A stretch of DNA of 64,000 bases from Bremia lactucae (Eukaryota > Oomycota > Peronosporomycetes > Peronosporales > Peronosporaceae), in contig NC_090620.1 of the NCBI RefSeq assembly GCF_004359215.1, forward strand, positions 3,253,492 through 3,317,491, written 5' to 3'. The position numbers and the translations under genes were made by a program. The notes under the pieces were generated by a model, which was given only the letters and a program-made list of their open reading frames with translations, had not been told where the DNA came from and did not search any database. Positions 40,423 through 42,081 of this stretch are shown one piece after another. The first letter of the stretch is position 1. Every line of letters begins with the position of its first letter.

Positions 40423-42081
40423 GGCGACAAATAAGTCTGTGCGCGTGGCCCGTGCGGCCGCAAAGCTGGAAGCTGCACGGATCAGTGCAGCTGTTGGTAA
40501 TGCAAATTGGGTAGACGCTAATGCGTCTACTGCGGAAAACACGTCACCTCCTACATGATTGGAGGTGACTGAAATATGACATCTGTCGATGACATTACAG
40601 GTGACGGCGAAAAGTCACCTGCTACATCAATTGTGATTGACTGGTCCAAGTCACCGGTATCACCCCACTCATTGCTACTATTAAGGCCGCCGGATCACCC
40701 GGGGCCGAGTCCGTTAAACATTTGGGTTCTAACGTGACAACCAGAGAGGTGATGACGAGGTTGATCGACTCGTCAGGCCTCTTTGGTGGGGAGTCATGTT
40801 GTCGTGAAGGTGGTGTGCTGCTGCTGCTGGTTCTAGTTTGCATCACCAGGAAAAGAGTGATTTTAGGGATCGCTCCAAGGGCCAAGTTAACGTTAACGTT
40901 AACGTGAGCCAACTGGAGAGGCAGCGCAAATCGTTGCAGTTCGCTCCTGGAAAAGATGCCTTGGTTTTTCTCTAGGGTTACCTAATTCGTTGGTCTGGTA
41001 TGACCGACGATCGATACCATAATCCGCTATTCGACTCCTCGAGACTTCACAAGCCTGGTGAGGATGGGACGGAATTTTTCATCAATGCTTTTCCCGGCAT
41101 CGGTGGTATTCTTGTAATCGGGCAAAGGATGTCAATCCTTTATTCCAAGCTTGGATAGCCTTTGTACAGAATGTGCAAAATGTAGGTCGTGAGGTCTGGC
41201 TTGACAAGCTAAATCATTTCCGTGAACAGTTCGAGAGACGGACCGTAGTCGGTGCACGCTATAGGTTGCACCGTTTTTCTAGAGAGGCAGGTATTTTTTT
41301 TCCTTGCCTATCGTAAGGGGACTCATGCCCATGCTGTATTATGGGTGCAGGTCATGCCCCTAAGGAAGCATATTCCCTCAAAAGTCATCATTGGAGGACG
41401 CTCATCTCTTACGAGATGCGTCAAGGGATTGAGAACCTCCAATCCTTTTACGAGCGCGGGAAGCGCTCAATCTTTGATGGACCTTCTGTCGAGGAGAATG
41501 GGTCTCGTCGTACTGCAGTACGAGAGCCGGAACGTCAAACATCAGTTAGTAACGAGATTCCCAACTATCATGCGAGGGTGGATACCTTTGCCAACGAACG
41601 AGATAACTCGTTCGGACCCCCTTTACCTCCCAGTGGCTCAAGAAGCTTTCAACAAGAAAACGCTTCTCACCACTCGAATCCGTCAATGGATGTGGAGAGG
41701 GAGGAAAAATTGTGTTCGCCTCATTTGACGAACCCGAATCAACACCGTGATTTGGATGACACCCTTCACTATTCGAGGGACGATATTGATCACGAGCGAT
41801 TCCGTCGCCGCGAGTAAGCGGTGACGGTTGATAATGTTTCTCGTGACCAGTTGAAAACTTTTGCGCAGGTTGCGACTGATCAACTGGCGAACGAAAGGAC
41901 ACATCAGTCCCTTCAAAACGAGCTGGTGACAGCTCGTCAGCAGATCTCTTCCATGGAGAAAAGAGTAAAGCATCTGGCTTGTGAGAAGCAGACTCTGTTC
42001 CGAGACCATAACGCTTTAACTCGGAACCATCAGGCACCAGAACGGTCTAGGGCATCCATCAGGCTTTGGTGGATGATCTAG
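40423..42081 (+). pseudogene. Antisense ORF (B3)
   Basis: Start MATNKSVRVARAAAKLEAAR at 40423, on the strand opposite to pol. Recognisable blocks are ENTSPPT and TGDGEKSPATS. The middle block AFVQNVQNVGREVWLDKLNH matches AFIRNVKDIGREAWLQRLNA of A4 (60130-60200). Then come IENLQSFYERGKRSIFDGPS (A: SIYKRQGRVFIDGPS) and ANERDNSFGPPLPPSGS (A: ASEQDNSFAAPSHHGGS). The C-terminal coiled coil at 41821-42081 has VATDQLANERTHQSLQNELV. These matches between families A and B are at protein level in the antisense frame. Several stops occur. Confidence 0.65.
41546..41675 (-). pseudogene. Chromodomain (B3)
   Basis: GEKRFLVESFLSHWEVKGVR, TSYLVRWQRYPPSHDSWESR, then a stop. The upstream linker reads open for 120 codons but is not joined to integrase. 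Confidence 0.8.

What the first reader, a model, noticed from the sequence alone, without database searches (positions are those of the whole stretch)
40423..42081. A conserved antisense gene in oomycete Ty3/Gypsy elements, matched between diverged families
Between integrase and the 3' LTR, families A (1269-2951, 29824-31504, 59396-61086), B (12462-13534, 40423-42081), C (32785-34100) and E (46380-47090) each carry a long frame opposite to pol. The protein matches across families where LTRs and pol differ. In the middle block, NVQNVGREVWLDKLN (B3) pairs with NVKDIGREAWLQRLN (A4). The FDGPS block (B) pairs with the FIDGPS block (A). ANERDNSFGPP pairs with ASEQDNSFAAP, and EIAKAKAHF (C) with DIAKARAHI (E). 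All share a plan: short basic/Ala start, acidic disordered part, conserved middle, coiled-coil end. The coil overlaps the integrase-chromodomain linker in the opposite direction. Antisense ORFs are known from some plant Ty3 (Tat/Ogre/Grande) elements. I know of none described for oomycetes, but I could not search. An accessory regulator or a gag-interacting protein is possible.
Basis: partly seen in the sequence, partly recalled or inferred. Interest (0 to 1): 0.9.

Follow-up and report, generated by a model that had tools for sequence, protein, structure and literature searches.

The report
Backward gene inside oomycete retrotransposons
Jumping genes in a probable downy mildew carry, on the strand opposite their replication genes, an extra protein gene that bears the mark of natural selection; such backward genes are known from some plant and fungal elements, and here there are two seemingly unrelated versions with the same design.

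Summary
Every window copy is broken, but the antisense gene is real. Relatives with long open frames occur in Peronospora and Hyaloperonospora and, for one type, Phytophthora; the own genome keeps open copies. Variants shared among copies avoid changing the antisense protein outside pol (residues 166-326: pN/pS 0.40 within family A, 0.46 A against B; shifted frames of that strand 0.87-1.24). Private mutations fall evenly on codon positions. So active elements were under selection and inserted copies decay. There are two genes, not one: group I (families A, B) and group II (C, E) show no detectable sequence similarity, yet share place, phase against pol, charge plan and predicted build: disordered start with an acidic stretch, basic middle, disorder, long helix (probably a coiled coil). 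In A about 230 codons lie opposite pol; selection follows pol at the chromodomain end and the antisense helix at the integrase-chromodomain linker. Most likely product: an oligomeric nuclear regulator of the element. Neither expression nor function was tested. Antisense genes are known from plant Ty3 elements and fungal Boty; the oomycete families and dual-coding overlap look new.

The parts
40421..42081 (+). Family B (B3) copy of the group I antisense gene, broken; pol on the minus strand
   Evidence: tblastn q217-530 of P0018 at 41074-42018, 40% identity; ATG 40421 read from sequence
12462..13534 (+). Family B (B1) copy of the group I antisense gene, badly decayed, cut on the left by a junction with another element
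   Evidence: tblastn q486-559 at 13277-13516, 36%; 12994-13255 is 80% identical to 41590-41851; start taken from the finding
1269..2951 (-). Family A (A1) copy of the group I antisense gene, broken by frameshifts; 230 codons open from the ATG
29824..31504 (-). Family A (A2) copy of the group I antisense gene, broken
59396..61086 (+). Family A (A3) copy of the group I antisense gene, broken
32784..34115 (+). Family C copy of the group II antisense gene, broken
   Evidence: tblastn P0054 q1-449 in pieces
46453..47417 (+). Family E copy of the group II antisense gene, heavily decayed
   Evidence: tblastn with the L036 antisense protein, E 2.8e-7, 2.5e-4 and 0.002
41546..42037 (-). Pol C-terminal piece of B3 with the first part of the chromodomain, opposite the antisense gene
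   Evidence: PF00385 Chromo, E 6.5e-7
32190..32672 (-). 3' LTR of element C (87% identical to its 5' LTR at 39487-39966)
32673..32783 (+). Spacer of 111 nt between 3' LTR and antisense ATG of element C; purine tract on the minus strand, initiator-like motif on the plus strand
   Evidence: LTR edge from the LTR pair; motif in related copies
31620..32060 (+). 3' LTR of element A2 (91% identical to 5' LTR at 25529-25960); the antisense ATG lies 115 nt before it
   Evidence: distance by reading
40021..40280 (-). 3' LTR of element B3 (blast pair 40021-40255 with 45498-45761, 74%); inner edge 40280 read from TG next to a purine tract
   Evidence: edge by reading
38736..39356 (-). Retrotrans_gag gene of element C, on the sense strand, so the antisense product is not the gag
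   Evidence: PF03732 E 3.4e-9

Best explanation
Chromodomain-bearing Ty3 elements of Peronosporaceae carry an antisense accessory gene between the 3' LTR and pol. Shown: related long frames occur in several genera; the frame is selected outside pol in families A, B and C, and in family A also in the long helix opposite the integrase-chromodomain linker. Inferred: it is transcribed backwards from a promoter in the 110-140 nt spacer next to the 3' LTR, or in the LTR. The product would be a nuclear, oligomeric protein: a disordered N-terminal part with an acidic stretch, a basic helical middle that binds nucleic acid or chromatin, and a long coiled coil. It would regulate the element's own transcription or integration, much as the antisense proteins of deltaretroviruses do for theirs. 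Groups I and II would be two independent solutions, or one gene diverged past recognition.
For: Relatives: 39 proteins for group I, 24 of them named (22 Peronospora matthiolae, 2 Hyaloperonospora); 21 for group II, 9 named, in Peronospora, Hyaloperonospora and three Phytophthora species. Open copies: of 89 rows matching P0018, 34 cover at least 500 of 559 residues in one frame, 2 of them without a stop. Codon test, 40 distinct A copies, outside pol: variants shared by 4 or more copies at antisense codon positions 1/2/3 are 33/35/64, singletons 231/237/246, Fisher p 0.0016; 17 C copies (3 or more) 9/9/22 against 136/120/134, p 0.0088; 20 B copies, residues 166-326, 22/15/31 against 103/100/83, p 0.0073. 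pN/pS in the antisense frame 0.40 (AxA) and 0.46 (AxB) in residues 166-326, against 0.87-1.24 in the two shifted frames of that strand; opposite the linker AxA antisense 0.46, pol frame 1.10. Predicted build: disorder, helical middle (pLDDT 51-83), disorder, helix 429-536 (88-97); group II middle 81-260 at 67-92 and helix 375-431. Similar charge plan in hand-chosen segments: acidic part net -11 in both, middle +14 in both, pI 9.9 and 10.6. Same phase against pol in both groups.
Against: No transcript, protein or localisation data. No consistent Pfam family, PDB sequence or fold match for either middle domain, so nucleic-acid binding rests on charge alone. The initiator motif of family A also appears on the reverse strand (25 of 28 forward, 23 of 28 reverse) and FPR in only 1 of 28. 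In the codon test the A N-terminal part alone (p 0.11), the A stretch opposite the chromodomain (p 0.24) and the C overlap (p 0.18) are not significant, and the C result outside pol weakens to p 0.073 if variants in two copies are counted. Between A and B the antisense frame opposite the chromodomain end is unconstrained (1.13). Of 34 near-full-length rows, 32 carry a stop.
Confidence: 0.45

Rival explanations
1. The frame is not a gene: it stays open only because the chromodomain and integrase on the other strand are conserved.
For: Opposite the chromodomain end, constraint follows the pol frame (pol 0.53 AxA and 0.50 AxB; antisense 0.79 and 1.13).
Against: About 326 codons of group I and about 284 of group II lie outside pol, and antisense-frame constraint is seen there. 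Opposite the linker of A the antisense frame is constrained and pol is not (0.46 against 1.10). Long open relatives exist in other genera.
Confidence: 0.03
2. The antisense gene acts mainly as RNA: the backward transcript pairs with pol RNA and feeds small-RNA silencing that limits copy number.
For: In P. infestans, sense and antisense small RNAs map along two abundant Gypsy elements (PMC3522703, passages seen). The overlap with pol would give double-stranded RNA. A review raises this for plant antisense ORFs (PMC7264820, passages seen).
Against: Selection is on the amino-acid sequence, in one frame, outside pol. RNA function alone would not favour change at third positions.
Confidence: 0.1
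3. The product is a structural or assembly factor: a coiled-coil protein that binds Gag or integrase in the particle, or tethers the chromodomain integrase to chromatin.
For: Long predicted helix; position next to the chromodomain; occurs in chromodomain elements.
Against: No consistent match to a Gag or integrase-binding family. An antisense message is not the gag-pol message, so separate expression is needed anyway (inference).
Confidence: 0.25
4. The genes were captured from the host, or from a nested mobile element inserted backwards, and are passengers.
For: Two seemingly unrelated sequences sit at the same place.
Against: Relatives in several genera and purifying selection, so not passengers before insertion. 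No consistent match to a host or mobile family. An ancient capture is not excluded.
Confidence: 0.12

Closest known systems
Plant Ty3 antisense additional ORFs between pol and 3' LTR (aORF-3R: maize Grande gene23, rice RIRE2, Silene Retand with TRP28, Phaseolus PvRetro13) - PMC7264820 and PMC11963269, passages seen
   Same: Antisense gene between pol and 3' LTR, shared across species, no clear homologs, nuclear in Grande, SMC match in PvRetro13, proposed regulators
   Different: No TRP28 (PF04195) match; the gene here runs about 230 codons opposite pol including the chromodomain, whereas the word 'overlap' does not occur in the Retand paper; two seemingly unrelated protein families; oomycete host
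brtn of Boty-like elements of the fungus Botrytis cinerea (Zhao et al. 2011, seen only as cited in PMC8365987 and PMC7264820)
   Same: Additional antisense gene in a Gypsy-type element of a filamentous plant pathogen
   Different: Sequence of brtn not held here, so relation untested
HBZ of HTLV-1 and related retroviral antisense proteins (PMC10186651, passages; PMC3736048, listing)
   Same: Antisense gene at the 3' LTR end; acidic and basic parts plus a coiled coil (domain plan of HBZ recalled)
   Different: No bZIP match; no homology shown; expression untested here
Chronos and Archon, oomycete Ty3 elements (PMC5348765; abstract, one section and passages seen)
   Same: Chronos: oomycete Ty3 with chromodomain at the end of pol
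   Different: Chronos has a second, archaeal-type RNase H, and 'antisense' does not occur in that paper's main text; the pieces read here show only the Ty3-type RNase H

Membership tests
Antisense additional ORF between pol and 3' LTR (aORF-3R) | ORF antisense to gag-pol, between pol and 3' LTR | tested here: met
   Positions and LTR pairs for A2, B3 and C; here it also runs opposite the end of pol
Antisense additional ORF between pol and 3' LTR (aORF-3R) | Present in many copies and in several species | tested here: met
   148, 150 and 150 rows in the own genome; relatives in other genera. That those too are antisense to pol was seen only indirectly: the tail of Peronospora P0048 resembles, by eye, another reading frame opposite the integrase motif
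Antisense additional ORF between pol and 3' LTR (aORF-3R) | Own antisense transcript (described for Grande) | not testable with these tools
   No RNA data; initiator-like motif only suggestive
Retand antisense ORF with TRP28 domain | PF04195 match | tested here: not met
   No family at E<=1 for the open group I frame L022; the tables of P0018 (E<=10) and P0054 (E<=1) do not list it. Tables over all members show only 25 of 30 and 25 of 57 families. A genome search was also empty, but its controls were silent
HBZ-type retroviral antisense bZIP protein | bZIP domain | tested here: not met
   No bZIP family in the tables of P0018 and P0054; a long helix is predicted
HBZ-type retroviral antisense bZIP protein | Transcription from the 3' LTR | not testable with these tools
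   No RNA data
Chronos (oomycete Ty3) | Chromodomain at the 3' end of pol | tested here: met
   PF00385 in 3 of 3 pol pieces of families A and B, chosen because they held the motif; family C by motif reading
Chronos (oomycete Ty3) | Second, archaeal-type RNase H | tested here: not met
   One C piece has RT_RNaseH at 17-120 and Integrase_H2C2 at 221-279 with no other family between; one A piece shows RT_RNaseH only but ends before the integrase (E<=0.01)

The most novel reading that the evidence does not exclude
Oomycete Ty3 elements evolved an HBZ-like antisense regulator at least twice: two unrelated proteins with the same plan (acidic disordered start, basic helical middle, coiled coil), at the same antisense place and in the same phase against pol. 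In family A the integrase-chromodomain linker of pol is a by-product of the antisense coil and not the reverse.
Probability: 0.3. Interest if true: 0.82.

Novelty: new variant of a known kind. Interest (0 to 1): 0.62.

Why it matters
Antisense accessory genes are described for plant LTR elements, where their function is not known (PMC7264820, passages), and for human retroviruses. Families conserved across oomycete genera, one of them shown to be dual-coding with pol, give a new, testable system. They show that an element can keep selection on both strands of the same DNA and divide it: pol at the chromodomain end, the antisense protein at the linker. They also surface in gene catalogues: one relative is listed as an RxLR effector candidate and another as a core-binding-domain protein of Hyaloperonospora; both are likely transposon proteins under misleading names.

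Tried and rejected
Homology of group I and II: whole-protein profile comparison gave probability 0.9%, E 0.059. That is better than ten column-shuffled controls (E 0.24-0.96) but no better than a reversed control, E 0.068. The match printed covers P0018 355-395, within the stretch opposite the chromodomain (about 357-408, PF00385 carried over through). Middle domains alone gave 0.05%, below the mean of 30 shuffles.

Tyrosine-recombinase core-binding fold, suggested by the UniRef name of P0021: no such family in the tables of P0018 or P0054. Two group II members hit PF10136, called a site-specific recombinase, at E 0.013, which I do not count as evidence. No such fold among the rows shown; not excluded. 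Scattered member hits to Pfam families, best E 0.00025 (Bap31/Bap29 coiled coil), were in at most 3 of 40 or 3 of 23 members.

A burst of B rows with the same score (28 rows at E 2.7e-52) looked like evidence that the gene is dispensable. Two of them are 100% identical over 3808 bases and show neither an open antisense gene nor an open pol in the 4 kb held, so they look like passengers of some other repeat; not pursued.

IMG/VR scan with the group II alignment: 30 pattern matches, none confirmed.

Duplicates: one search counted copy A1 twice and one search counted two C copies twice; one search repeats the count without them, and with one of the identical B pair L059/L060 removed, and is the one used. 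Searches used 40 A, 21 B and 18 C rows, with one C copy (L032/L033) and the B pair still double. Codon mapping required 40% local identity (25% for B), which could favour conserved protein; the even singletons in the same mapping argue against a large effect in A and C.

Full report
What was checked. The window is a stretch of a 116 Mb genome in 220 contigs. None is open over its length in the window.

The gene is real. A search with an open genomic copy (L022, 454 codons) found 39 proteins at E<=0.001. A search with an open family C copy (L036, 456 aa) found 21, nine of them named, in Peronospora, Hyaloperonospora and three Phytophthora species (541-601 aa); there only the 7998 candidates sharing most words were scored. 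In the own genome the three query pieces gave 148, 150 and 150 rows, all lower bounds. With P0018, 34 of 89 rows cover 500 or more residues in a single frame and 2 of these have no stop.

Selection. Copies were mapped codon by codon. Variants shared by at least four of 40 distinct family A copies fall outside pol on antisense codon positions 1/2/3 as 33/35/64, while changes private to one copy fall 231/237/246 (Fisher p 0.0016; with variants in three or more copies p 0.0093). In 17 C copies variants in three or more copies are 9/9/22 against 136/120/134 (p 0.0088; with two or more copies p 0.073). In 20 B copies, residues 166-326, they are 22/15/31 against 103/100/83 (p 0.0073). The private changes are a built-in control from the same sites: after insertion decay looks neutral, before it the protein was protected. 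Not significant on their own: the A N-terminal part (p 0.11), A opposite the chromodomain (p 0.24), the C overlap (p 0.18); A opposite the linker has p 0.015. By pN/pS, residues 166-326 give 0.40 within A and 0.46 between A and B (pS 0.78, saturated), against 0.87-1.24 in the shifted frames of the same strand; within B 0.71 against 0.91-0.97. One minus-strand frame shares the third position and is also low (0.54 AxA, 0.59 AxB), as expected.

Dual coding. In L011 pol ends opposite residue 327 of P0018, so about 230 codons overlap. In L011 and L026 pol first positions face antisense first positions, and pol second positions face antisense third positions (worked out by hand; B3 agrees by the coordinates). 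Over residues 331-430, which hold the part opposite the chromodomain (PF00385 in 3 of 3 pieces tested), pol is constrained (0.53 AxA, 0.50 AxB) and the antisense frame hardly or not (0.79, 1.13). Opposite the linker (431-536) the antisense frame is constrained (0.46 AxA, 0.69 AxB) and pol is not (1.10 in both). In family C the phase is the same in 8 of 12 copies read, one is ambiguous and three differ; pol ends opposite about residue 285 of L036 in 6 of 12, the others being shifted. There the split is not clear: antisense 0.71-0.72, pol frame 0.92 and 1.21, but another shifted frame is as low (0.69-0.71).

Two genes, one plan. Whole-protein and middle-domain profile comparisons find no convincing similarity between group I and II. 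Yet both start next to the 3' LTR (115 nt from it in A2, 111 nt in C, by reading), run backwards into pol in the same phase, have an acidic part of net charge -11 (P0018 50-130, P0054 1-100; segments chosen by hand), a middle of +14, a disordered stretch and a long helix. No coiled-coil program was run; 'coiled coil' rests on the long confident helix and on weak matches to coiled-coil proteins. Group I also has an invariant His and four near-invariant Cys (H282, C292, C299, C301, C302; 23 sequences; not in the list of the fragment-rich alignment), which could bind zinc; this is inference.

Expression. Oomycete core promoter motifs INR (YCAYTYY) and FPR (MWTTTNC) are from PMC3599244 (passages seen). 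In the last 110 nt before the start, INR occurs in 25 of 28 A copies (3.2 expected by shuffling) but also on the reverse strand in 23 of 28, with FPR in 1 of 28; in C, INR in 16 of 18 rows forward (4.9 expected) and 0 of 18 reverse, with FPR in 16 of 18 (one C copy is counted twice). This is suggestive only.

Known background. Antisense ORFs in this place are known from plant elements and Boty (PMC7264820, PMC11963269, passages seen). I saw none described for oomycetes among the papers listed; these show only the top of each list, and the library lacks most subscription journals. The word antisense is absent from the main texts of the oomycete element paper PMC5348765, the Bremia genome paper and the P. 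sojae centromere paper PMC7082073.

Verdict. A real, selected antisense accessory gene, in two seemingly unrelated versions; function inferred, not shown.

Noticed in passing
P0021, P0052: Relatives of the antisense protein are named 'Core-binding (CB) domain-containing protein' and 'RxLR effector candidate protein' in Hyaloperonospora; both look like transposon proteins under misleading names.
   Followed up: partly
P0072 (Phytophthora cactorum, 601 aa): By eye, its N-terminal part resembles a retroelement protease stretch fused to a group II antisense protein; probably a gene-model artefact across neighbouring elements.
   Followed up: no
G000, 28 rows at E 2.7e-52; L059, L060: Rows with the same score for a decayed family B piece; two checked copies are 100% identical over 3808 bases with no open pol, so some larger recent repeat seems to carry a dead element along.
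   Followed up: partly
window 12162-12464 and 12462-13625: Junction of two elements in opposite orientation: 12162-12311 is complementary to the B3 integrase stretch 42269-42418, while 13519-13625 is a direct repeat of 42165-42271.
   Followed up: partly
L015 (G000:C9:2023700-2027700): Two family A antisense copies read towards each other and meet near locus position 2090, suggesting a nested or inverted pair of elements.
   Followed up: no
window 19070-20176 (-): Protein of 368 aa with a PTM/DIR17-like Tudor domain (PF21743, E 2.4e-13); not part of the finding.
   Followed up: no
P0018 H282-C302: Invariant His and four near-invariant Cys in the middle of group I, a possible zinc site; not seen in group II.
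   Followed up: no
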